The translations under genes and the position numbers were made by a program. Under the pieces are notes generated by a model, which saw only the letters and a list, made by a program, of their open reading frames with translations, was not told where the DNA came from and did not search any database. This document shows positions 3,595 to 49,768 of a stretch of DNA of 60,460 nucleotides, piece after piece. The first letter of the stretch is position 1, and each line of letters opens with the position of its first letter. This stretch comes from Candidatus Rifleibacteriota bacterium. GTDB taxonomy: Bacteria; Riflebacteria; Ozemobacteria; Ozemobacterales; Ozemobacteraceae. The stretch covers positions 1 through 60,460 of the forward strand of contig JAKQOH010000064.1 in NCBI GenBank assembly GCA_029565415.1, written 5' to 3'.

Positions 3595-5898
<2,304 letters not shown>

Positions 5899-5905
<7 letters not shown>

Positions 5906-6885
5906 TCCCCATCCTCCTTCGGGGCTTCCGGGGAGGCGACATCGAGCAGGGCTTTCCAGGCCGGGGGAAGCATCGCATCGATGGTCTCGGGGGTCATCAC
6001 ATCCGGACGGGTACCCGTCTCGAGGATGATGGCGCGCACCATCTCGAGCCGCAACCGCGGAACCAGGTTCGCATCCGCCGTATCCCGCACCTGCTCACCA
6101 AGCACCTCGACGGAGTTCCGGATCTCGCCGAGCAGATCGCTTTTCACCGCCTCGAGCTCGACGAGGGTGAGGGAAGGAATCTGTGATCGGGCCTCTTCCA
6201 GGCTCATCCAGGGGGTTTCGTCGAGCAGCGTGCGCAGCCGGGTTCGCTCCCCGATTCGTGCGGCATGCAGACAGACGGCGCAGGCGGTCGTGCCGGCCCG
6301 GACGGTGACACCGCCGCACGTGGGGCAGGGAACCATTCCTTCACCGGCGAGTGCTTCGCGGCGGGCCTGAAGTTTTGCCCGGCACTGTGCGATCACGCTT
6401 CGCAGCGCATCGTCGGCGATGGCCGGCAGATCACCCAACCGGACGTTCCGCCAGTCTGGCCACGAAGGCGGAAGCGCAACCGGCGACGTGGCGGGCATCT
6501 TCCCGATCTTCGTGACCACGGTCTGGATCTCTTCTCCCGGACAGAGCTCGTTGACGCGCTCCAGAACCTGGCTCCGGACGAAGCTGAACGTCTGCATCCA
6601 CGGAGAATCCTCGCAGAGTACGAACAGCTTCTTCTGGAACAGCCGCTCCGGGGCCGTGTGCGACGCGAGGTCCGGTCCGACGATCGATGGCCATGCCTTT
6701 CGGAGCCGGCCGATGCGCAGCATCTCGGCACCCGCCGCCCGGGCTACCTTGAGCGAAAACCCCCGCCCGCCCTGCTGCCCGTAGCGAGCCTCCCAGACCT
6801 GGCGACGGAAATCCGTCAACACGTCGGGGAGAAGGCTTCCGAGAGGTCTGATGCCGCCTCTTGCCCTGCGGGGGGTGTCTGCCAT
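5899..6885 (-). CDS. DciA/DUF721-like helicase-loading protein with zinc-ribbon tail
   Basis: The 328-residue protein has a DUF721/DciA domain at about residues 45-125, with the typical W-P-x-I-V-G-P-x-L pattern near residue 65. DciA is the ancestral loader or recruiter of replicative helicase DnaB. The protein is about twice the usual length. After the domain comes a four-cysteine motif, CPTC at 187-190 and CAVC at 202-205, and a helical C-terminus with no match I recognise. I chose ATG 6885 (MADTPRR) because a good promoter lies 84-112 bp upstream (6969-6997), whereas longer frames would start upstream of it. Proximity to dnaA supports a replication role. The zinc-binding reading is inference. 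Confidence 0.8.
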
Positions 6886-30470: not shown

Positions 30471-31364
30471 GTGTCCGATCTGCTGGAGCAGTATCTGGCG
30501 TATCTGGCCGTGGAGAAAGGGCTTCGCCCGAAATCTCTCGAGGCCTATCGTCGTGACCTGCTCGATTACCTGACCTTTCTCGAGGAGAAAGGCCGCCGCC
30601 CCGACGAGCCGGGGGCGGACGGCCCGCTTGCGCTGTTCATGGTGCATCTGCACGGCCGGGGCCTCTCGCCGCGGTCGATGGCGCGCAAATCCTCGACCCT
30701 GCGCGGGTTTTACCGGTTCCTGCGGCGCGAGAACAAGATCGCGGTCGACCCGACCAAGATCATCGAGCCTCCGAGACTGGGCCGGCCGCTTCCGAAAGTG
30801 CTCACCATCGCCGAGATCGAGGCGATGCTGGCTGCGCCGGCCACGGATGGGCCGCTCGGCCTGCGGGATCGGGCGATCCTCGAGGTGCTGTATGCCACGG
30901 GCATCCGCGAATCCGAACTGATCGCCCTCGAGCTCGGCAGCATCAACCGCGAGGGACGGTTCGTCCATGTCGTCGGAAAGGGTGGCCGTGAGCGCGTCGT
31001 GCCGATCGGGGTCTATGCCCTGAACGCGATCGAAGCCTATCTGCAGGATGGCCGTCACAAGCTGATCGGCGGCAACATCACCGAGCGCACCCTGTTCCTG
31101 AATCCGTTCGGCAAGCCCCTTTCGCGCATGGGGCTGTGGAAAATCGTCCGGAAATACGCCGTGGCGGCCGGCATCACCAGCCTGGTTTCGCCCCACGTCC
31201 TGCGCCACTCGTGCGCGACACACATGCTCGAGGGCGGGGCCAGCATTATCGCTGTGCAGGAGATGCTCGGCCATGTCGACGTCTCGACGACCCAGATCTA
31301 CACCCACCTGACCGGCCAGGATCTCAAGCGGATCCACGGCCAGGCCCACCCCCGGGGTCGGTGA
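30471..31364 (+). CDS. Tyrosine recombinase XerC/XerD
   Basis: The 297-residue protein has the N-terminal SAM-like core-binding domain (about 1-90) and the catalytic domain. Arg146 (ATGIRESEL), His242/Arg245 (HVLRHSCATHML), a later His in LGHVDVST and the nucleophile Tyr277 (TQIYTHL) are all in place. Xer proteins resolve chromosome dimers at dif. No phage genes are nearby, so a housekeeping role is more likely than phage integration. XerC and XerD cannot be separated by eye, although the HSCATHMLEGGA pattern is closer to XerD. GTG 30471 follows GAGGAG. Confidence 0.9.
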   Translation: MSDLLEQYLAYLAVEKGLRPKSLEAYRRDLLDYLTFLEEKGRRPDEPGADGPLALFMVHLHGRGLSPRSMARKSSTLRGFYRFLRRENKIAVDPTKIIEPPRLGRPLPKVLTIAEIEAMLAAPATDGPLGLRDRAILEVLYATGIRESELIALELGSINREGRFVHVVGKGGRERVVPIGVYALNAIEAYLQDGRHKLIGGNITERTLFLNPFGKPLSRMGLWKIVRKYAVAAGITSLVSPHVLRHSCATHMLEGGASIIAVQEMLGHVDVSTTQIYTHLTGQDLKRIHGQAHPRGR

Positions 31365-31369
31365 CGCAG

Positions 31370-34300
31370 ATGACCCACCGACGGCGGTACCCGGCCGGCC
31401 TCGCGCTCATCCTGCTGTTCGTCGCAACGGCGATGTGCGGCCGGGCCGATCTGGGCACGGCGCGCGTTCCGGTGCCCCCCGTTGTGGAAGCCGCCCGCCC
31501 GATCCCAGCCCCGGCCGTGACCGCACCTCCGGCGTCGATCGCGTCGGAGCCCGTTTCCGGAGCCCTTTCAGCCGTCCCCGCCGTCTCCTCCGACAGCGCG
31601 GTTCCTCCCTGCGCATCCCAGGCCATCACCACCGGCTCTCTCCCCCATGATGTGGGAAGTGAGCCGGCTGTCGCCTCTGAAGCGGACGGCCTTGCCGCCG
31701 TGACGCCGTATGTTGAAAATCTGCATGATATTATAAATAATTATATAAATACCGCCCGCGCAGGTCTGGGCGTGCTGACCGCGAAACCCGCGGAAACGCC
31801 CGTCCAGCCTTCCGAGGCGCCGGCCCCCGGCCCGATGGAGGTGCCCTCGGATGCCGAGGCTTCGGCTCCGGGAATGGTGGCGGCCGCCACGGTTCCGATT
31901 TCCGGGGCGGTCCGGGCGGACCCCGGGGCGCCCCCGCCGCCGGTGCCGCAGCGGTTCAAGGCCTGGAAATCCCCGGCCGTGGCCCGCGCCTATTTTGCGA
32001 GCCGGGTGCCGGCGATCGATCCGGAGGTGTTCCGCCGTTCCGCCAGTTCCACGGGACGGATCCTTTTGCCGCCCCATCATCCGAGGCTGCCCCTCACCAG
32101 TCCGTCGACTCCGAAAATCCCGCCGGCATCCGATCCGGCGGTCGTTCCGTTTTCGACGGCGAAAAAACCGGCTCCGGCCGCCCCGCCCACGCCCGGCGAG
32201 ATCGCCGTGGCGCTGCAGAGCCAGCCCGGGCTGGCCGCGCTGCCCCCGTCGCCGTTTCCCGACGATCGGTCCGGTGACGGCGAGGAGGACGGGGAGGAGC
32301 GGAAGCTGAACATCTCGGGCACCAAGACGTTCGAGATGAAGAAAGCCGATGTGAAGGGCGATCTCAGCCACTTCTCGACCGAGAACTACGACTCGATCCC
32401 CGGCTTCCATCTCGACCAGAGCATGCATCTCGAGATCGACGGCAACGTCAGCCGCAACGCGAAGGTCAGCGCCGTTCTCGACGACAAGGAGGACGAGGAC
32501 CGCCGGTTCACGATCAACCTCGACGGCCCGACCTGGGATCTCACGATGGGCGATTTCCCGCTCGGCCTCGCCGACACCGAGTTCCAGCTGTTCCGCAAGG
32601 AAGTGCGCGGCATCATGGCGCAGGGCAAGGTCACGGACCGGGTGCAGGCGATGTTCCTGTATTCCCAGTCGAAGGGGCGCTCGCGGCGCGAACAGTTCCG
32701 CGGCGCGGGCCAGCAGCAGGAGTTCCGGCTGGCCGCCCAGCCCGTCGTCCAGAACTCGGAAAAGGTGACGATCGACGGCCGGATCCTGACGCGGGGCACC
32801 GACTACCTCGTCGATTACGAGGACGGCGTGGTCAAGTTCCTGGCGCATATCCTGCCCATCGAAGTGACGAGCTGGATCGTCATCGAGTATGAGGTGAACG
32901 ACGAGAAGATGGCGTTCAAGCGCAATCTCTACGGCACCCGGCTCCAGGCGCAGCTCGCCGAGGGTCGCCGGATCGGCCTGACCTGGCTGCGCGAGCTGGA
33001 TGCCGATACCCCGAAGGCCGGCGTCGGCTCCTCGAGCGTCGTGCCGATGCAGCACGATCTGGTCGGCCTCGATGCCGACTGGCGTCTCAGCGGCACCCTT
33101 TCCCTTTCCGGGGAAACGGCGCTTTCGCTGTATGATCCGAACCGGCTCTCCGACACGGCTTCGTCCGACCGGGTGATCGACGATCTGGCCTCCCGGTTCC
33201 AGTTGAAGGCCAAGAACGAGACCCTGAGCGGCGAGCTCGGCTTCCGGCGCGTCGGGAAGGAGTTCCGGATGGTGGGCCGCGAGGGCGGGGTGGCCGAACT
33301 CGGCGAGCGCGGCCTGGCGAATGATCTGCTGAAGGGAACCGGCCGCGTGACCTGGAAGGCCCGGCCCGACCTGCAGCTGTTCGCGGGGCTCGAATCGTCG
33401 AAGACGAACCTGTCGAACGACCCGGCCGTCTCGCGCATCGAGTTCCGGGATCTCAACGGCGGCGCCGCGTTCACCTTCCGGGAGCGGTCGCGGCTGGAGG
33501 CCCGGTATGGTGTCCAGTCGGACGAGGAGCGGCTCGCGGGGCCGGTGACGGACATGGACAAGAAGGTCGGCACCGTCGTCTGGGACCACGAGCTGGGGCC
33601 GGTGTTCACCCAGAGCAAGCTCGAGCACACGACCTACGACGACTCGCTGCACGATGCCTCGGGCTCGCGGGTGTTGAACCTCTCGACCAGCATCGGCAGC
33701 GATCGCGACAGGAAGCTGACCTGGACGGCCGGGGCCGCGCGCGTGACGGTCGACGACGACATCGACCGGACGCAGCTGCGCTCGGATACCAGGAACTATA
33801 CATTGGATCTGAACTACGAGCCGACCCGCGTGCTCAACGCCCGCGGCATTCTCGAGTGGCGCACCGAGGACGATCTGCTGGTGAACACGCGCCAGGATGG
33901 GCAGATCGCCGACTCGCGGATCCGGTATCAGCCGAACCGTGACTGGACGAGCCAGTTCAAATATAAAGTTGAAAATACATCTAAAGTCATTCGTGACGCG
34001 TCGCTCGACCCGACCCGGTATGTGAAGCCGACGAGCCTGCCGCAGACGGAGGACGAGAAGGATGACGTGCTGACGCGGTTCGAGAACCCGGTGCAGAAGA
34101 CCACCTCGAACTTCACCACCTCGTGGCATGCCGGCGACAAGGTCGAGACGACGTTCGACTGGAAGCGGCGCGACCTCAAGGACCGCGCGACGCGCACGCT
34201 CGTCTCGCTGAATGACCGCACGAGTTACGAGGTGCGGTACACGCCGATCCGGCAGCTGAAGCTGACGGGGGAGTATGAGGACGGCGAGTCGATGGCGCTG

Positions 34301-34792
34301 TCGCCGCAGACGAAGCTGTTCGACACGGTCCGTCGGTTCCAGATCCGGAACGAGTTTTTCGAGGGGTATATCATCGACACGCTGTGGGAAGACCGGGATG
34401 AGAACGATGTCTGGACCGACGAGAATGACCGGCGCACGATCGGCAAGGCCGTCGATTTCCAGAGGGTGTTCTCGCCGATGGCCACGCTCGAGGCCGGTGT
34501 CCAGAGGAACGTGATCCGGTCGCGCCAGCCCAGCAAGGAGTGGGAGACGCGGGCGGCGTTCGTGCTCACCCCCTCGGCGCGGAACCAGCGGTATCGGTTG
34601 TTTTTGACGAACAAGGAGATCGACTCGGCCGTTCCGGGCACGCATCGCGAGGGCGGGCTGAGCTTTTCCCAGTTCATCGGCAGCGACAGCCTGGTCGAAG
34701 GCGAGATCAAGCGGGTCGAATCGACGGCCGGCCTTCTGGGAGCCGGGTATGAAGGCACCGTGGCGAATGCCAAGATGGTGATCACCTTCTGA
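31370..34792 (+). CDS. Large exported beta-barrel-like surface protein
   Basis: The 1140-residue protein starts 5 bp after the recombinase gene; ATG 31370 gives a clear signal peptide (RRRYPAGLALILLFVATAMC). A Pro/Ala-rich disordered region of about 250 residues follows. A folded region then begins (KKADVKGDLSHFSTENYDSI) with a segment of type LTRGTDYLVDYEDGVVKFL, reminiscent of outer-membrane SprA-like repeats. The last 600 residues alternate charged and hydrophobic positions as in a very large beta-barrel. Signs of local codon switching occur at 31715-31755 and 33955-33990. I cannot name a family with confidence. It lies just upstream of the giant RNA gene. Confidence 0.65.
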   Translation: MTHRRRYPAGLALILLFVATAMCGRADLGTARVPVPPVVEAARPIPAPAVTAPPASIASEPVSGALSAVPAVSSDSAVPPCASQAITTGSLPHDVGSEPAVASEADGLAAVTPYVENLHDIINNYINTARAGLGVLTAKPAETPVQPSEAPAPGPMEVPSDAEASAPGMVAAATVPISGAVRADPGAPPPPVPQRFKAWKSPAVARAYFASRVPAIDPEVFRRSASSTGRILLPPHHPRLPLTSPSTPKIPPASDPAVVPFSTAKKPAPAAPPTPGEIAVALQSQPGLAALPPSPFPDDRSGDGEEDGEERKLNISGTKTFEMKKADVKGDLSHFSTENYDSIPGFHLDQSMHLEIDGNVSRNAKVSAVLDDKEDEDRRFTINLDGPTWDLTMGDFPLGLADTEFQLFRKEVRGIMAQGKVTDRVQAMFLYSQSKGRSRREQFRGAGQQQEFRLAAQPVVQNSEKVTIDGRILTRGTDYLVDYEDGVVKFLAHILPIEVTSWIVIEYEVNDEKMAFKRNLYGTRLQAQLAEGRRIGLTWLRELDADTPKAGVGSSSVVPMQHDLVGLDADWRLSGTLSLSGETALSLYDPNRLSDTASSDRVIDDLASRFQLKAKNETLSGELGFRRVGKEFRMVGREGGVAELGERGLANDLLKGTGRVTWKARPDLQLFAGLESSKTNLSNDPAVSRIEFRDLNGGAAFTFRERSRLEARYGVQSDEERLAGPVTDMDKKVGTVVWDHELGPVFTQSKLEHTTYDDSLHDASGSRVLNLSTSIGSDRDRKLTWTAGAARVTVDDDIDRTQLRSDTRNYTLDLNYEPTRVLNARGILEWRTEDDLLVNTRQDGQIADSRIRYQPNRDWTSQFKYKVENTSKVIRDASLDPTRYVKPTSLPQTEDEKDDVLTRFENPVQKTTSNFTTSWHAGDKVETTFDWKRRDLKDRATRTLVSLNDRTSYEVRYTPIRQLKLTGEYEDGESMALSPQTKLFDTVRRFQIRNEFFEGYIIDTLWEDRDENDVWTDENDRRTIGKAVDFQRVFSPMATLEAGVQRNVIRSRQPSKEWETRAAFVLTPSARNQRYRLFLTNKEIDSAVPGTHREGGLSFSQFIGSDSLVEGEIKRVESTAGLLGAGYEGTVANAKMVITF

Positions 34793-34869
34793 CGGCAACG
34801 TCCGGATGCGGCTTTGGCGCTGCGCAAACACCCTCGGACAACGGAAGATGAAAAAAGACAAAATAGTAT

Positions 34870-34898
34870 TTGACAGGTTGGGGTTTTCTGAATATATT
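34870..34898 (+). promoter_or_regulatory. Consensus sigma70-type promoter of the giant RNA
   Basis: TTGACA (34870-34875) and TATATT (34893-34898) are separated by 17 bp, close to perfect consensus and the best promoter seen in the window. The predicted start, 7 bp beyond the -10, is A34905, the first base of the RNA's terminal helix. No reading frame follows. Confidence 0.85.
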
Positions 34899-34904
34899 GG
34901 TTTT

Positions 34905-36035
34905 ACTGAGTGACTGATTCTTTGACAAGCGAACTGGTAGCCGCAAGGCGTATACTTCCGGACTCCGGTCGGTCCTTGATACGGGTGTCCGAAGCGGGTT
35001 TTCTATCGTACGGTGACGTTCGTGCCAAACCCAAGGGGAATCCATAACCCAGGTATCCCACAGGTCCTCACCGGAAGCATACGTCAGAAGGCAAAAACTT
35101 CAAGAGGGGAGGACATCCCTCACCGGATGTCCATCGTCGACTGCAGAAGAACCCTGTAGCGGTCTTGAACCGCAGGAGGGGGTGGTCCAGACCAGGGCGG
35201 TCGATCGAGAAAAACCCTGAAGGAGAGAAGGCCAAGAGAGCTGCTTTCGCCCTTGGAGGGTGAAACTTCCAAGTGTTCTCGAGGCGCGCGTGATCGGGAG
35301 TAACGCTCCAGGATCGATCCAAGTCCAGGATGGAAGCCGGCTGTTTTCGGACAGCGAGGTGTCTGGCATCGAACAGGTCGAACGTGGGTAAAACCCTTCG
35401 GCCGGGCGGGTGGTGCCGCCAGCGATGTCAGAAAGGAAGCCATGAAGGACGGACAACGATGAAGGAGCAAGGGTTCGGAAACGGTATCCATATCGATCAC
35501 GAGTGAAGCTCTGAAGGCCCCAACCCTCGGAGTGCCTGCGGGGTGGAATAAACCCGCAAGCCGAATCGGAGAGTATCTCTGTCAAGAGGTTGAGAAAACC
35601 TGCAGATGGAGAGCATCGGGTGTGAAAACCCGAATGTCCTGTCCGGTCGGTGATGGCGCTGAAAGGGATGAAACCCAGGGAGGCTCCGGCGTTCCAGCCG
35701 GTGTCGACCGATGATCAAACCTTGAAGTCGGCTGAAGCTCACAAGAGGATGATTTGACACGTTGCATCACGCATGTGTTGTGGCTGTGGCGAGGGCCTCG
35801 TGGACGTCGAAACGTCTGAGGCTTGACGTAATCCATGCGCGTCATAGCGCAGCCATTCCAAAACTCTAAAGAGCAGGTAACGACACGAAGGTTCGAAGCG
35901 AGGCGGTGACGTTGCGCTTCGATTGTCGGTCCATAGGTCTCCAGCAGGGAAAGCCAGTTCGCTGATGCTCTGAATTCGGTCACTCAGTCTTTTTAGCTCA
36001 TTTTTTCGCCCCGCGCAGATCGCGCGGGGCGTTTT
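34905..36035 (+). ncRNA. Giant structured noncoding RNA, about 1.1 kb, unassigned family
   Basis: The RNA has its own promoter (34870-34898) and an intrinsic terminator (36007-36035). Its ends pair over more than 1 kb. ACTGAGTGAC (34905-34914) pairs perfectly with GTCACTCAGT (35979-35988). TGATTC (34915-34920) continues with GAATTCG (35972-35978) around one bulge. After an internal loop, AGCGAACTGG (34928-34937) pairs perfectly with CCAGTTCGCT (35954-35963). Inside are many stems: 34950-34961 with 35071-35082 (one mismatch), 35111-35118/35125-35132, 35159-35173, 35252-35273, 35537-35558, 35617-35632, 35803-35816, 35836-35851 and 35893-35900/35915-35922, the last enclosed by CGACA/TGTCG. A GNRA hairpin GCC-GCAA-GGC lies at 34940-34949. 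No reading frame here looks like protein. Size and style recall OLE, GOLLD or ROOL, but I cannot place it; rRNA, tmRNA and RNase P signatures are absent. Confidence 0.85.
36007..36035 (+). terminator. Intrinsic terminator of the giant RNA
   Basis: CGCCCCGCGC (36007-36016) and GCGCGGGGCG (36022-36031) form a perfect 10-bp GC stem with loop AGATC, followed by TTTT and a further T-rich run. Two upstream T-runs (35990-35994, 36001-36006) separate it from the closing helix of the RNA. Confidence 0.92.
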
Positions 36036-36060
36036 GCTTTCGGCCGGTTTGCCTGCCCGC

Positions 36061-36252
36061 TCAGCGGGGCTTGCAGTCGAACCGGACGGTGAGTTTCTGC
36101 GCGTCGCAGGCGCCGATGCCCACATCCGTCCGGGCATCGGAGAGATGGTCGATCACGGTGTCTTCCAGGCCGCCGTCGACCAGATACGTGAAAAACTTCC
36201 GAGCCATCTCCTGGGCCCGGTCACCTTCGAAGGAAATCGTGACGCTGTTCAT
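36061..36252 (-). CDS. Small protein of unknown function (63 aa)
   Basis: The predicted product is 63 residues, starting MNSVTISFEGDRAQEMARKF and containing a DTVIDHLSDARTDVGIGA segment. It appears soluble and mixed alpha/beta, with no signal peptide or membrane segment. ATG 36252 has AAAGGTG about 5 bp upstream, and an AT-rich, TATA-containing region at 36268-36290 could be its promoter. It converges on the giant RNA, ending 26 bp from the RNA's terminator. I recognise no family. Reality is supported by the ribosome-binding site and codon use but is not certain. Confidence 0.6.
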   Translation of the reverse strand: MNSVTISFEGDRAQEMARKFFTYLVDGGLEDTVIDHLSDARTDVGIGACDAQKLTVRFDCKPR

Positions 36253-36314
36253 GGGCTTCACCTTTCAATGTATATAGTATACGATATTATCGTCTGCTGG
36301 GTGTGCAGTCGCAA

Positions 36315-37919
36315 TCAGCGTGGAGGCGGAGGAGGCGGGACGGAAGGCCGGTTCGGGGTCACGATTTCCTCGCCGTCCGGGCCAATGAAGAAGGCGTTCT
36401 GACCCTCCAGCACTTCCGCGGCGCCGTTCCTGAACGGATGGGCTGTCGTGAAGCGGCAGGGTATGACGAGCTCGCCGGCGGGGTTCATATACCCCCACAG
36501 GCCATCCTTTTTCACGGGAATCAGCCCGCCCGAGAACGTCTTGAGAAGAACACCCCGGTCGCTCGAACAGACATCCTCGAACTGCGGCTGGACAGCCATC
36601 TTCCCTGACGGATCGATGAATCCCCAGAGGCCGTTCTCGGTTTTGACGGGGGCCAGGCCTTCGCCGAACTCGCCGGCCCGGTTGAAGGTTGGAGGAACGA
36701 CGATCTGGCCTTTCTCATCGATGAAGGCGTGTTTGTCCCCGACGGTGATCCGGCACCGGTTCTGCCGGAACGGGCCTGCCGAGTCGGCCTCCACCCGGAA
36801 GAGGAACTTTCCATCCGGGCCGATGAAGCCTGATTTCGCATTGGTCTTCACGAAGGCTTTCCCCTCGGAAAACTCATCGGCATGCACGAAGCCGGGCTCG
36901 ATCTTCCACGCCCCTGTCTTGTCGATGAACCCCCAGAGCCGGCCTTTCATCACAGCGGCGACTCCTTCCGAGAACGGCTTGCCGCGCTCGAAGGACGGCG
37001 GAATGACCTCGCTGCCGGACAGGTCGAAATATCCGGTCAGGCCTTCCCGCGTGAAGCCGCACATGCCGTCCCGGATGACCGTCACCCCGCCGATCGAATC
37101 GGCTTCCGGGCCGTTCACCACGATGTCCCCGGTACGTCGGTCCTTCAGTTTCATGGTGCCCTTGCTGAGCATAACGATCAGCTCTTCCTCTTCGGGGGCT
37201 GACGTGGTTGGCGCCGGAGTCAGTGTTTTCGGCGCGACGGGATTCATTCCGGTAGGCGCAGCCGGCACCTGGCCGCCGGGCATCGGATTCCCGGTATCGA
37301 GCTTCATTTCCAAGGGCGGATGATGCGGGCAGGTGATTTTCGCGATTCCATCCGAGAAGGCGACCGTTATCTGGCCGTCCGTTGGGCAGGTGTAACGCTC
37401 CTTGAGCAGGCCATCAGCGAGAAGCGTCGCCTGAATGTCCCCCGACAGCGTCGCATCGGAATGATCCATGAAATACATCTCCATGGCGCCAAGGAGAATC
37501 TTTTTCCGGGCTGCGCAGGCTTTCTGCCGTGCATCCGTCGCTGCGAGCCTCAATCCGGCCGTGAGCGATCCGATGGCCGTTTCCTTCGCCGGGAGCTTTT
37601 CGAGCTCTCCGCGAAGCTGCGCGGCCTTGGCGGGGTCTGACGGTTCGAGCCGGGAAACGACCGCCCGGGCGTCGTTCAGCCGCCCCTGTCTGGTCAAGGC
37701 CAGGCCGTAGGCATACAGGGCCCGGACGTTTCCGGGGTCCTGCTTCAGAGCCAATTCAAAGATATTGGCGGCTTCCGCATACTGCTTCTGCCGGCCGAGC
37801 TCGGTTCCCTTCTTCACCAGCTCCTCAACTGTTTCAGCCAGAGCCGGTGCAGGGGCTGCCAGCACCAAGGCGAGAGCTGCGGCACCCATGAGCAGCCGGG
37901 TATGATTCATGTCCCGCAT
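36315..37919 (-). CDS. Exported TPR and WG-repeat protein
   Basis: The 534-residue protein has a signal peptide (about 1-28), a TPR segment (about 30-95, KKGTELGRQKQYAEAANIF), a middle region with CPTD and CPHH cysteine pairs, and a Pro/Thr linker. The C-terminal third is WG/KWG repeats (LWGFIDKTGAWKIEPGF, LWGFIDPSGKMAVQPQF, LWGYMNPAGELVIP). These repeats form beta-propeller-like surfaces of mostly unknown role. AGGAGG lies 5 bp before ATG 37919, deciding this start over an upstream in-frame ATG. It ends in a poly-Pro tail. Confidence 0.85.
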   Translation of the reverse strand: MRDMNHTRLLMGAAALALVLAAPAPALAETVEELVKKGTELGRQKQYAEAANIFELALKQDPGNVRALYAYGLALTRQGRLNDARAVVSRLEPSDPAKAAQLRGELEKLPAKETAIGSLTAGLRLAATDARQKACAARKKILLGAMEMYFMDHSDATLSGDIQATLLADGLLKERYTCPTDGQITVAFSDGIAKITCPHHPPLEMKLDTGNPMPGGQVPAAPTGMNPVAPKTLTPAPTTSAPEEEELIVMLSKGTMKLKDRRTGDIVVNGPEADSIGGVTVIRDGMCGFTREGLTGYFDLSGSEVIPPSFERGKPFSEGVAAVMKGRLWGFIDKTGAWKIEPGFVHADEFSEGKAFVKTNAKSGFIGPDGKFLFRVEADSAGPFRQNRCRITVGDKHAFIDEKGQIVVPPTFNRAGEFGEGLAPVKTENGLWGFIDPSGKMAVQPQFEDVCSSDRGVLLKTFSGGLIPVKKDGLWGYMNPAGELVIPCRFTTAHPFRNGAAEVLEGQNAFFIGPDGEEIVTPNRPSVPPPPPPR

Positions 37920-38063
37920 GTCATCCTCCTGGGAGGGTTGTTCTTCACCGGGATGATACATCGGCCGGGACGGGCGTGCGACGACTCTGATGAAGCGAAT
38001 GGCCGGCCGTTCGCAATGTGGGCCAGGTGACAGAAGGAATGGCCGCAGCAGATCTGGAGCGGG

Positions 38064-46444: not shown

Positions 46445-48532
46445 TTAGAGCCAGGTCTTCTGGAGGGCGGTGACGGCTTCGTTGGCGGCCTTGATGAGGG
46501 CGGCGGGGGAGATGTCGCTGCCGACGCCGCCGATCATCCACTGGCGGGGGGTGAGGCAGCCCTGCTTGCAGATGCGTTCCATCTCGGTGCCGATGTTCTT
46601 GCCGCGCATGAACTCGTCGATCTGGAAGCTGATCATGTAGCCGAGCGGGTAGTCGCTGAGATACAGCGGGTAGGCCAGCATGTGCGAGTAGATGCCGAGC
46701 ACGGTGCTGTCCTTGATGCCGAAGACCGGGGCGTAGTAGGCGTTCCAGACGTCCTTCGCGATCGTGATGACGGCTTCCTTCAGCTGGGCCGGGGTCGCGT
46801 CGGGGTGGTCGTAGAGCCAGCGCCAGACGCGCAGGTCGACGAGGGCGACACCCGAGATCTCGTAGGCGGACCAGAACGTGTCGAGGGTGTTCCGGTGCTG
46901 GACGGCCGGATCGTCGAGCTTCATGCCGATCACGTCCATGTCGCGGCTCTGGAACAGGAACGCGAAGCACTCGGTGCAGGCCGTGTTGGGCACGTCGCCG
47001 AGCAGGTAGTGGTCGGCCCCGTACAGCGAGAGCACCTGCTCGGTGCAGTGGCCGAGCTCGTGCATCGCGGTGTTGAAGCCCTGGTAGTCCATGCCGCCCT
47101 TGGGAACGCGGGTGCGCAGGTGGGACCGGTCGGTGCGCATCATCGCGGGCGTCGCGTGGCCTGCGCCGCGGGCCGGCTCGACGGCGATGCGGCCGGCGAT
47201 GAACTTCGCCTTCTGTTCCTCGAAGCCCATGAACTTCAGGATGTTCGGGATGTCGCGGGCAAACGCCTGCAGGTTCGGATACGCGTCGCGGACCTTCTGG
47301 TTCAGCTCCTTCTCGGGCAGCTCGCCGGCGACCTTGAAGCCGGAATACCACAGATCGAACGGGCGCAGCTTGCGGCCGATCTTCTTCGAGATCAGTTCAC
47401 CGGTGCGGGCCGCGGCGTCTGACGAGATCAGCGAGACGAGCAGCTTCTCGACCTCGGCCTCGGGAATCTGGCGCATCAGGTCGAAGCGGCGGTCGATGTA
47501 GCGCGGATACTTGGGATACAGCGGGTCGACCAGGCGCTGGGCGTGGAAGTTCACCAGCATCTTCGCGTAGCGGGTGTCGGGCTCGGGCGCGGCCTCGATC
47601 TGCTTGAACCCGTTACCGGCCTTCTCGAACACGGTGTTCGCGACGGGGTCCCAGTAGACGGGCTTGTTGACGACCATCTGCGGGATCGACTGGTCGATGA
47701 CCCGCTCCATCACCTTGAACAGCATCTCCTGGCCGATCAGGCCGTCGGCCTGGGCATACAGGGTCGAGAGGTGGTCGCGCAGGCCCCAGTGGCTGATCAG
47801 CTTGAGATCGTTCGAGAAGATCGTCTTCTTTTCGGAGTTCAACAGGTAGCTGGCGAAAATATTATAGTCATTCACATACGCCTCGGCCTCGATCTCGGCG
47901 TCGTTGACTTTCTGCCGGACCGCTGACGGGACGCGGGCCGAATACGAGTCGCAGAGGCGGGTGCGGGCCCACTCCTCGCGGGTCCAGGACGGGCCTTTCC
48001 CGAGTTTTTCGGCCAGCGTCGTCTGCGGGAAGTTGAGCAGAGTGATGAAGGCGATCTTCACCCGGAACAGGTCGTCCTGCAGATGGTTCGACGGATCAAG
48101 CTTGGCGAACGCCTCGTCGAGCGGCAGACAATCACCGATATCGAGATCGAGCGGCCGCTTCAGGTCACGCGTCAGCCGGTGGAAGTAGCCGTTGATCGAC
48201 TCGAAGTTCTCCTGGAGCCGGTCGAACGTCTCTTTCAGGACTGCCGGGTCGGCGACGAACTGGTCGAGGCAGAACGTCACGAACTCGTCGTGAGAGCCGT
48301 CCTCGGCGCGCCAGAACGGGGCGGCCTGGGCCACGCCGGCTTCGATCCGGGCGCGGTGCGTTTCCCCGTGTTTCTTGACCAGCCCGGCTACGGCGCGGGC
48401 CTGGACGTCGGCGGGGATGCCGGCCGTGTCGACGGCCTCCGTGGCTGCCGGCTTCGAGGCCGGGGCCGGGGTGGCTGCGAAGGCCGGGCAGAGCGAGAAC
48501 GTCAGGGCGGCGATCAGGAACAGACGTTTCAT
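46445..48532 (-). CDS. Exported M3-like zinc metallopeptidase
   Basis: The 695-residue protein has a signal peptide (about 1-20, MKRLFLIAALTFSLCPAFA) and a largely helical body with the gluzincin site HELGH (491-495). The third ligand is Glu521 in NTACTECFAF. This spacing is typical of family M3 (oligopeptidases). The body is longer than oligoendopeptidase F and diverged, so family placement is moderate. ATG 48532 has GAGGA close upstream. Downstream is a decayed partial copy of its own 3' region (45346-45446). It probably degrades peptides in the periplasm. Confidence 0.82.
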   Translation of the reverse strand: MKRLFLIAALTFSLCPAFAATPAPASKPAATEAVDTAGIPADVQARAVAGLVKKHGETHRARIEAGVAQAAPFWRAEDGSHDEFVTFCLDQFVADPAVLKETFDRLQENFESINGYFHRLTRDLKRPLDLDIGDCLPLDEAFAKLDPSNHLQDDLFRVKIAFITLLNFPQTTLAEKLGKGPSWTREEWARTRLCDSYSARVPSAVRQKVNDAEIEAEAYVNDYNIFASYLLNSEKKTIFSNDLKLISHWGLRDHLSTLYAQADGLIGQEMLFKVMERVIDQSIPQMVVNKPVYWDPVANTVFEKAGNGFKQIEAAPEPDTRYAKMLVNFHAQRLVDPLYPKYPRYIDRRFDLMRQIPEAEVEKLLVSLISSDAAARTGELISKKIGRKLRPFDLWYSGFKVAGELPEKELNQKVRDAYPNLQAFARDIPNILKFMGFEEQKAKFIAGRIAVEPARGAGHATPAMMRTDRSHLRTRVPKGGMDYQGFNTAMHELGHCTEQVLSLYGADHYLLGDVPNTACTECFAFLFQSRDMDVIGMKLDDPAVQHRNTLDTFWSAYEISGVALVDLRVWRWLYDHPDATPAQLKEAVITIAKDVWNAYYAPVFGIKDSTVLGIYSHMLAYPLYLSDYPLGYMISFQIDEFMRGKNIGTEMERICKQGCLTPRQWMIGGVGSDISPAALIKAANEAVTALQKTWL

Positions 48533-48661
48533 ATATTCCTCGTGATAGAAAGTTTTCCCGGAGCGGATGTCCGGATCAGAATGGTGATTGATGAAATGAC
48601 CGGAAGAACGATACCATGCCCGGGAAGGAATTTCCTTCCATCCTGCAAGCGGGAGGCGGTC

Positions 48662-49603
48662 ATGATCGATTTGCTGAAGGTGTTCGCGGGGAGATCGAAC
48701 CAGAAGTTCGCGGAAGAGGTGACCGAGCATCTGGGAATCCGCCTCGGGAAGCTCGACATCTCGACGTTCTCGAACGACAACATCTCGGTCCAGATCCAGG
48801 AAAACGTGCGCGAGCGCGACATCTTCGTCATCCAGTCGTTCACCGAGCCGGTGAGTGACCACATCATGGAACTGTTCATCCTGCTCGATGCCCTGCGGAG
48901 CGCTTCGGCCAAACGCATCACGGCCGTGATCCCGTATTTCTCCTACGCCCGCTCGGACAAGAAAGACGCGCCCCGGATCTCGATCACCGGCCGGCTCATG
49001 GCCGACCTCCTGCAGACCGCCGGCGCCGACCGGGTTCTGACGATGGATCTGCACTCGGACCAGGTGCACGGCTTCTTTTCGATCCCCGTCGATCATCTGA
49101 GTGCGATCCCGACCCTCGCCGAGCATGCCCGGAAGACGATCGACCTGGGCAACGCCGTGGCCGTGGCGACCGACGCGGGCGGCGGCAAGCGCGCCGGAAA
49201 GTTCGCCGAGCGGCTGGGCATCCCGATGGCCATCATCGACAAGCGCCGGATCAACGACGAGAAGGTCAAACACGGCCTCGTGATCGGTGAGGTGAGCGGC
49301 AAGGACGCGATCATCTTCGACGACGAGATCGCCGCGGCCAGCACCATCGTCTCGACCGTCGAAACCCTGCGCAAGGCCGGGGCCCGGAAACTCTATGCCG
49401 GCGCCACGCACGCCGTGCTGTGCGGCCCCGCGATGGAGCGGCTGAAAGCGCTGGATCTGACCGCCATCATGGTGTCCAACACCGTCGAGGTGCCCGAGGC
49501 GAAAAAACTGCCCAACCTCCAGATCCTGTCGGTGGCCCAGTTGTTCGCCAAGGCCATCGACCGCATCCATACCGGCGAGAGCATCGGCGCCCTGTTTTCC
49601 TGA
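48662..49603 (+). CDS. prs: Ribose-phosphate pyrophosphokinase
   Basis: The 313-residue enzyme makes PRPP from ribose-5-phosphate and ATP. It shows the family patterns NVRERDIFVIQS, PYFSYARSDKK, TMDLHSDQVHGFF and VATDAGGGKRAGKFA, and the PRPP loop IIFDDEIAAASTIV. ATG 48662 has GGGAGG upstream. It is divergent from the peptidase gene with a 129-bp shared gap. Confidence 0.96.
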   Translation: MIDLLKVFAGRSNQKFAEEVTEHLGIRLGKLDISTFSNDNISVQIQENVRERDIFVIQSFTEPVSDHIMELFILLDALRSASAKRITAVIPYFSYARSDKKDAPRISITGRLMADLLQTAGADRVLTMDLHSDQVHGFFSIPVDHLSAIPTLAEHARKTIDLGNAVAVATDAGGGKRAGKFAERLGIPMAIIDKRRINDEKVKHGLVIGEVSGKDAIIFDDEIAAASTIVSTVETLRKAGARKLYAGATHAVLCGPAMERLKALDLTAIMVSNTVEVPEAKKLPNLQILSVAQLFAKAIDRIHTGESIGALFS

Positions 49604-49768
49604 GACCACGGGCTTTCTGTCAGACATGCGAAAAAAATGCCAGATCCCTCAAGCAGTTCAGATTCGATCGAGGTGTATCCGTCATTTTTGAGCTGCCAAA
49701 TCGGCATAATTGTGGTATATTATAAAATATATGATTGATTTCAATGCACAAAGGAAAACTTCACTTCG

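What the first reader, a model, noticed from the sequence alone, without database searches (positions are those of the whole stretch)
34905..36035. A 1.1-kb autonomous structured RNA of unassigned class
This stretch carries a near-consensus promoter, a perfect intrinsic terminator and paired ends over 1 kb apart. It is filled with perfect local hairpins and contains no credible protein. Autonomy (own promoter and terminator) argues against an intron. Known families of this size (OLE, GOLLD, ROOL, tmRNA, rRNA, RNase P) have signatures that I do not find or cannot match. It is the best candidate in the window for an undescribed system.
Basis: partly seen in the sequence, partly recalled or inferred. 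Interest (0 to 1): 0.95.

Follow-up and report, generated by a model that had tools for sequence, protein, structure and literature searches.

The report
Giant folded RNA of Riflebacteria
A stretch of about 1.1 kilobases in a Riflebacteria chromosome is predicted to be a gene for a large folded RNA that makes no evident protein; related copies turned up in 28 of 39 genomes searched from that phylum, the sequence matches no family in the RNA library searched, and it likely works as a free-standing RNA scaffold whose job is still unknown.

Summary
Window 34905-36035 has an 11-of-12 sigma-70-type promoter, 13-bp paired ends over 1 kb apart, a 10-bp terminator and no credible ORF; it folds 7.6 sd better than dinucleotide shuffles. 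It matches no Rfam 15 family. It is not unique: three RNA models together find it in 28 of 39 genomes of the Riflebacteria phylum, with no credible match in 383 genome look-ups outside it. Among 23 aligned copies, 222 of 310 predicted pairs show compensatory change. The shape is a six-way hub: closing stem plus five branches. Branches II+III (421 nt) and IV+V (426 nt) look like a tandem duplication, and the four arms inside them like copies of one module. Branch I has a similar layout but no detectable sequence kinship. Neighbouring genes vary, no phage, plasmid or viral copy was found, and RNase P is encoded separately. I read it as a new family of large free-standing structured RNA, likely a repeat-armed scaffold. 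Transcription and function are untested.

The parts
34870..34898 (+). sigma-70-type promoter TTGACA-17-TATATT, predicted start about 34905
   Evidence: 11 of 12 consensus bases; 27 of 31 copies have 9 or more of 12 in the 80 bases at the 5' edge, 16 of 31 at shuffle p 0.05 or less; the -35 boxes nearly share columns in the 23-copy alignment
34905..34917 (+). P1, 5' strand of the outermost stem
   Evidence: 13 pairs with 35976-35988
34929..34938 (+). P2, 5' strand of the stem that closes the central hub (pairs with 35953-35962)
   Evidence: 10 pairs, 93% of cells paired, 7 with compensatory change
34940..35092 (+). branch I: stem, very short hairpin, stem, two hairpins; GNRA-type loop at 35013-35016
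   Evidence: covarying helices; no sequence kinship to the other branches
35099..35224 (+). branch II, short arm of unit 1
   Evidence: covarying helices; hit by model R3 of branch IV and, more weakly, by R2 of arm A
35230..35519 (+). branch III, long branch of unit 1: stalk, hairpin 35250-35275, arm A, hairpin 35471-35489
35305..35468 (+). arm A (module copy)
   Evidence: model R2; 36 of 45 pairs with double change; hit by model R1 of arm B
35524..35667 (+). branch IV, short arm of unit 2
   Evidence: model R3; 26 of 42 pairs with double change, 97.3% of cells paired
35674..35949 (+). branch V, long branch of unit 2: stalk, hairpin 35685-35702, arm B, hairpin 35895-35920
35720..35891 (+). arm B (module copy); its first hairpin, about 35750-35779, is variable and inferred
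   Evidence: model R1; 28 of 47 pairs with double change; the variable hairpin
35953..35962 (+). P2, 3' strand
35976..35988 (+). P1, 3' strand
36007..36035 (+). intrinsic terminator, 10-bp G-C stem and TTTT
   Evidence: a perfect stem of 5 or more pairs and T-run in 19 of 31 copies by a strict script, one of the 31 lacking its 3' end

Best explanation
Window 34905-36035 is predicted to be a free-standing gene for a noncoding RNA of about 1.1 kb, from a family that matches no Rfam 15 model and has related copies in 28 of 39 Riflebacteria-phylum genomes searched, and it likely acts in trans as a folded RNA scaffold. Shown by sequence: promoter, terminator, paired ends, a conserved and covarying hub with five branches, and similarity among four arms (II, A, IV, B). 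Inferred: nested duplication. An ancestral double-three-way-junction arm was likely doubled into a short-arm plus long-arm unit, and that 420-nt unit was likely doubled again. Inferred and untested: the four like arms would offer four equivalent docking sites, either for copies of one protein or for RNA-RNA contacts through the conserved A-rich loops and junctions, so that the RNA would hold several copies of one partner or pack into a pseudo-two-fold particle. My odds: new RNA family 0.95; unit duplication 0.85; scaffold as the way it works 0.4.
For: Family: four full-length nhmmer hits, 66-70% identical by BLASTN, downstream of xerD; BLASTN matches in 16 of 16 relatives; models R1 25 of 39, R2 adds G017, R3 adds G038 and G039, these three confirmed with R1. 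Fold: 222 of 310 pairs with compensatory change; 0 of 500 shuffles and no slid control reach the covariation score in three branches. Duplication: the arm A model hits arm B in 10 of 17 loci, best E 7e-12 in 83 kb, and the arm B model hits arm A in 9 of 13 loci at E 0.02 or less, best 6e-8; the branch IV model hits II at 23 bits, E 2e-4; all six pairs among II, A, IV and B at 14 of 300 permutations or fewer, U1-U2 0 of 200, branch I pairs 30-194 of 300. Autonomy: own promoter and terminator, varied neighbours. RNase P is a separate gene.
Against: No transcript data. My all-pairs covariation test found 0 significant pairs; the test limited to predicted pairs found 29 of 310. 11 of 39 phylum genomes gave no accepted match. 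The outer stem search beat the 95th percentile of shuffles in only 18 of 27 copies, and in some the duplex found was P2. A 9-of-12 promoter score is often chance. Model E-values are for small searches and rough calibrations; R2 hits on branch II (16-18 bits) are no stronger than its best chance hits genome-wide (18 bits), so there the shared place is the argument. No conserved kissing or palindromic loops and no conserved partner gene, so nothing positive points to scaffold over ribozyme.
Confidence: 0.6

Rival explanations
1. A large ribozyme: the hub and A-rich junctions would form an active site that cuts, joins or modifies RNA or another substrate in trans.
For: Size, conserved unpaired purines and GNRA- and T-loop-like hairpins resemble large catalytic RNAs (the motif names and the comparison are recalled). 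One match in 23 of the 28 genomes.
Against: No Rfam intron, RNase P or other ribozyme model matches. Conserved loop residues are spread over repeated arms rather than one core.
Confidence: 0.15
2. An RNA-only assembly like GOLLD or ROOL: several copies would join into a shell or other homo-oligomer.
For: Ornate and free-standing; GOLLD, ROOL and OLE form homo-oligomers (PMC12286853: abstract and sections 4, 8, 9 read).
Against: No covarying loop-loop or palindromic contact beyond weak excesses; no phage or viral link. A-minor contacts cannot be tested by covariation.
Confidence: 0.2
3. A sponge for a CsrA-like regulator, in the manner of CsrB: repeated arms would titrate an RNA-binding regulator.
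For: Repeated arms.
Against: ANGGA motifs are not enriched: 240 against 241 expected in 27 copies.
Confidence: 0.1
4. A mobile or selfish element rather than a cell function.
For: G025 has four, G024 three, and G034, G012 and G017 two matches; two G034 copies lie about 2.3 kb apart.
Against: One match in 23 of 28 genomes; shared place downstream of xerD in close relatives; no mobile-element domain among 30 neighbouring proteins, 7 of which had no Pfam match at all.
Confidence: 0.05

Closest known systems
OLE RNA
   Same: Large free-standing structured bacterial RNA, about 600 nt, function not settled (abstract starts of PMC9723947 and PMC12265935, seen in the listing)
   Different: No Rfam match here; nearly twice as long; in a different phylum; no conserved partner gene found; apparent internal unit duplication
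GOLLD and ROOL RNAs
   Same: Giant ornate RNAs with extensive covarying secondary structure (PMC12286853, sections read)
   Different: No Rfam match; chromosomal; no phage or viral copy found; no kissing-loop covariation found
raiA motif RNA (ModT)
   Same: Conserved structured bacterial RNA (abstract start of PMC11706538); a monomer in PMC12286853 (section 8)
   Different: No Rfam match; size difference recalled
Tandem riboswitches
   Same: Repeated RNA domains in one transcript (abstract start of PMC9481103)
   Different: Cis-acting before a gene; here the RNA has its own terminator and the next gene with known domains runs the other way
CsrB-type sponge RNAs
   Same: Repeated structural elements in a free RNA (recalled)
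   Different: No ANGGA enrichment

Membership tests
Any of 4227 Rfam 15 families | Covariance-model score at or above the gathering cut-off | tested here: not met
   Only tRNAs in the window; 7 weak matches at E up to 10, all below cut-off; in 10 homologue loci 4 matches, none inside the RNA
RNase P RNA | RF00010 match | tested here: not met
   No match here; an RNase P match elsewhere in 38 of 39 phylum genomes, 37 over cut-off
tmRNA | RF00023 or ARAGORN match | tested here: not met
   No match; a tmRNA over cut-off in 27 of 39 phylum genomes, 19 of the 28 that hold the RNA
Group I or II intron | Intron model match | tested here: not met
   No intron model matches here; own promoter and terminator
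OLE, GOLLD or ROOL | Rfam covariance model of that family | tested here: not met
   No Rfam match; that these three are in the library is recalled
OLE RNA | Conserved protein partner genes nearby | tested here: not met
   No partner shared across loci; the feature itself is recalled
GOLLD or ROOL | Phage or prophage association | tested here: not met
   No blastn match in 50,697 phage records; pattern scans of viral contigs gave no family member
GOLLD or ROOL | Covarying or palindromic intermolecular loop contacts | tested here: inconclusive
   None found in 23 copies; the scan did recover the first hairpin of arm B that the fold model had missed, 14 of 23 against 7.5 expected; A-minor contacts not testable
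GOLLD or ROOL | Homo-oligomeric RNA cage | not testable with these tools
   Needs mass photometry or cryo-EM
CsrB-like sponge | Enriched ANGGA sites | tested here: not met
   240 observed, 241 expected in 27 copies
5' UTR riboswitch or attenuator | Lies before a co-directional gene it controls | tested here: not met
   The next gene with known domains (TPR, WG repeats) is 36315-37961 on the minus strand; a + strand ORF at 36034-36402 starts just after the terminator stem and has no Pfam match

The most novel reading that the evidence does not exclude
The first natural giant RNA seen to be built by nested domain duplication: one arm doubled into a short-plus-long pair, the 420-nt pair doubled again, giving a pseudo-two-fold, four-armed RNA particle around a six-way hub that holds or encloses several copies of one partner as a core machine of the Riflebacteria phylum.
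Probability: 0.3. Interest if true: 0.95.

Novelty: new variant of a known kind. Interest (0 to 1): 0.88.

Why it matters
Few bacterial RNAs over 500 nt are known outside rRNA and introns (recalled), and the functions of OLE, GOLLD and ROOL remain poorly understood (PMC12286853, section 4). A 1.1-kb RNA with no Rfam match, found in most genomes searched of one phylum and with strong covariation, is a ready target for cryo-EM. The internal duplications, if borne out, would show that large RNAs can grow by copying domains, as repeat proteins do, and would make the evolution of big RNA folds directly testable. They also predict several equivalent binding sites, which is a sharp experimental question.

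Tried and rejected
Known class: Rfam at gathering and at E up to 10 gave nothing. Stand-in for RNase P or tmRNA: RNase P is over cut-off in 27 of the 28 genomes with the RNA, tmRNA in 19 of 28. CsrB-like sponge: no ANGGA enrichment. Phage, plasmid or viral RNA: no blastn match; a 17-base pattern hit 4 viral contigs, none with an HMM match; two further patterns gave none. Protein: a GTG frame through branch IV is closed within 28 codons in 15 of 22 copies; sister copies G005 and G006 have longest ORFs of 185 and 147 codons that begin at about the same place, not shared by the rest. Occurrence outside the phylum: R1 in 0 of 40 genomes, R3 in 1 of 198 and 0 of 145; at least two genomes were looked at twice, searches used stricter filters, and the tool warns that an empty answer without a known positive shows little. 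The one hit is a simple GGTTTAATTGG-type repeat with no R2 support, so rejected. Four extra genomes at R2 E 0.18-0.48 (G019, G020, G026, G035) were not counted. G035's single 26-base BLASTN match had no HMM support. Five equal modules: layouts agree, but branch I shows no sequence kinship and its first hairpin is only 2-3 pairs, so I claim four. A first 40-permutation run gave A-B 0, II-A 0, II-B 0, I-B 0, II-IV 2, A-IV 2, IV-B 4, I-II 7, I-A 11 and I-IV 25 of 40; one search repeats it with 300. Both used 21 of 23 copies (G021 and G025 left out). Kissing or palindromic loops: none. Partner gene: none constant among 30 neighbours at 20 loci; the repeats seen were a solute-binding protein and a kinase/FGE protein in G009 and G013, and an FGE domain near one G024 copy.

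Full report
Observation. A TTGACA-17-TATATT promoter sits at 34870-34898 and a 10-bp all-G-C terminator at 36007-36031. The ends pair: 34905-34917 with 35976-35988 and 34929-34938 with 35953-35962. The predicted start, about seven bases after the -10 box, coincides with the first base of that stem. No + strand ORF of 100 aa or more lies inside, and five ORFs that overlap or touch it have no Pfam match. Among 27 copies the longest + strand ORF runs to 38-185 codons; a shared GTG in branch IV is followed by a stop within 28 codons in 15 of 22 copies. The fold is 7.6 sd more stable than 60 dinucleotide shuffles.

Origin. The window carries gyrA, gyrB and xerD. Its XerD is closest (87% over 255 residues) to a Candidatus Ozemobacteraceae MAG; of the next 15 relatives (66-71%) 12 are labelled Riflebacteria, Rifleibacterium, Ozemobacter or Ozemobacteraceae. 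So this is a bacterial chromosome of the Riflebacteria phylum. No whole genome is held for the window itself.

Known families. Rfam 15 gives only tRNAs in the window. At E up to 10 in 34700-36200 there are seven matches, all below their cut-offs. In ten homologue loci four matches appear, none inside the RNA.

The family. A single-sequence nhmmer search of the 80 loci finds four full-length copies at E 6e-101 to 8e-129, all downstream of xerD, 66-70% identical by BLASTN. BLASTN finds matches in 16 of 16 relatives and in 22 of 39 phylum genomes, one of them (G035) a 26-base match that did not hold. Covariance models of three separate regions reach further: R1 (arm B) 25 of 39 at E up to 0.1, all at 5e-6 or better; R2 (arm A) adds G017 at E 2e-8; R3 (branch IV) adds G038 and G039 at E 6e-10 and 3e-10. 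R1 confirms those three. The union is 28 of 39. R3 alone gave 26 of 39 and missed G021 and G034. At the R2 threshold of E up to 1 the raw tally was 32; the four extra genomes (G019, G020, G026, G035) score about 13 bits or less and are not counted. The 11 without an accepted match are G018-G020, G026, G029-G033, G035 and G036; gaps in draft genomes cannot be told from absence. G025 has four matches, G024 three, and G034, G012 and G017 two each; some lie on short contigs, so assembly redundancy is possible.

Outside the phylum, R1 matched 0 of 40 genomes at E up to 1, and R3 matched 1 of 198 and 0 of 145 at E up to 0.001 under stricter filters; at least two genomes were counted twice. The single hit is a simple GGTTTAATTGG-type repeat without support from R2. 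I found no copy in the phage and plasmid records or, by pattern scans, in viral contigs.

The fold. On 23 aligned copies (46-97% identity) RNAalifold gives 310 pairs; 91% of cells are standard pairs and 222 pairs show compensatory change. A tree-based null of my own found 29 of 310 predicted pairs significant; an all-pairs version found none, which I put down to low power with 23 sequences and 1166 columns. On better aligned pieces, pairs with a double change number 26 of 42 (branch IV, 21 copies), 28 of 47 (arm B, 23 copies) and 36 of 45 (arm A, 22 copies); G008, near-identical to G011, was left out of A and IV, and G021, which lacks most of it, out of IV. In all three the covariation score beats 500 of 500 shuffles and every slid control. 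The alignments were made by MAFFT without structure, but the structures were derived from them, which favours them over the slid versions. The outer stem search alone beat the 95th percentile of shuffles in 18 of 27 copies; in several others the duplex found was P2.

Anatomy. P1 and P2 close a hub with mostly A-rich linkers. From it radiate branch I (34940-35092), II (35099-35224), III (35230-35519), IV (35524-35667) and V (35674-35949). Each arm has the order stem, hairpin, stem, two hairpins, with two cautions: the first hairpin of branch I is only 2-3 pairs, and that of arm B is variable and was recovered by a separate scan. III and V are longer: stalk, hairpin, stem, arm (A or B), hairpin. 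A 3x3 internal loop of the type ANG facing GNA recurs at 35101, 35233, 35309 and 35326, in part of the copies at 35527, and reversed at 35723. Loops GTGA at 35013 (20 of 23), GTGAAA at 35260 (20 of 23) and GTGGAAYAAA at 35543 (18 of 23) are well conserved; their naming as GNRA- and T-loop-like is recalled.

Internal duplication. The arm B model, searched in 32 sources, also hit arm A of the same RNA in five. With filters off in 17 loci, R2 hit arm B in 10 of 17, best 38 bits, E 7e-12, and R1 hit arm A in 9 of the 13 that hold it at E 0.02 or less, best 43 bits, E 6e-8. R3 hit branch II over the whole model in four loci at 23, 20, 17 and 14 bits, E 2e-4 to 0.05, with short hits in II in five more. 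R2 hit branch II over the whole model in two loci at 16-18 bits; chance hits of R2 in the 39 genomes reach 18 bits, so only the matching place speaks for those. A column-permutation test on 21 of 23 copies, with structure held fixed, gave 1 of 300 for A-B, 1 for II-IV, 4 for II-B, 7 for II-A, 12 for IV-B and 14 for A-IV, and 0 of 200 for the whole units. Branch I gave 30, 70, 108 and 194 of 300 and serves as a negative control. The units II+III (421 nt) and IV+V (426 nt) are nearly equal in length. I infer nested duplication: arm first, then unit.

Autonomy. Of 31 copies with a 5' end, 27 have 9 or more of 12 promoter bases and 16 reach shuffle p 0.05 or less; a strict script found a perfect-stem terminator in 19 of 31, one of the 31 lacking its 3' end. 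The -35 boxes nearly share columns in the 23-copy alignment. Close relatives share the upstream xerD and a large ORF, but farther ones do not, and 30 neighbouring proteins at 20 loci, 23 with a Pfam match, share no partner. RNase P is over cut-off in 27 of the 28 genomes with the RNA and tmRNA in 19 of 28, so the RNA does not replace RNase P, nor tmRNA where that is seen.

How it likely works. A free-standing, ornate RNA with four kindred arms and A-rich junctions points to an RNA that acts as a folded body in trans. My best guess is a scaffold with several equivalent docking sites. CsrB-like titration lacks its motif. RNA-only assembly as in GOLLD and ROOL (PMC12286853, abstract and sections 4, 8 and 9 read) is possible, but the loop covariation that supports it there was not found here. 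A ribozyme is not excluded.

Print. Searches for Riflebacteria with noncoding RNA, Ozemobacter, large RNAs and duplicated RNA domains listed no title or abstract start that describes this RNA; only open-licence PMC papers are held. In PMC11109978 I saw passages only.

Noticed in passing
L204:4994-5266 (minus strand), beside the G034 copy at about 5390-6480: A group II intron (RF02001, RF01998) lies just downstream of one RNA copy, as terminator-targeting introns do (recalled).
   Followed up: no
L204 (G034), L197-L202 (G025, G024): Extra copies: two in G034 about 2.3 kb apart, four matches in G025, three in G024, some cut by contig ends.
   Followed up: partly
L131 (G021): The G021 copy lacks a stretch equal to window about 35485-35620, most of branch IV and the 3' side of the branch III stalk; real deletion or assembly fault is open.
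   Followed up: no
L201 (G024 copy): This copy lacks most of branch I (window about 34966-35088).
   Followed up: no
L003 (record titled Candidatus Methylomirabilis): XerD (68%) and the RNA place this MAG among the Riflebacteria; the genome collection lists it in the same phylum, so its title looks wrong or outdated.
   Followed up: no
46445-49627 minus, 1060 aa: A long ORF with high GC3 (0.81) and no Pfam match.
   Followed up: no
31136-34792 plus, 1218 aa: Large ORF just upstream of the RNA with no Pfam family; relatives of it lie upstream of the RNA in close relatives.
   Followed up: partly
L227:3770-3857 minus: A selenocysteine tRNA (RF01852) about 1.2 kb from the G038 copy.
   Followed up: no
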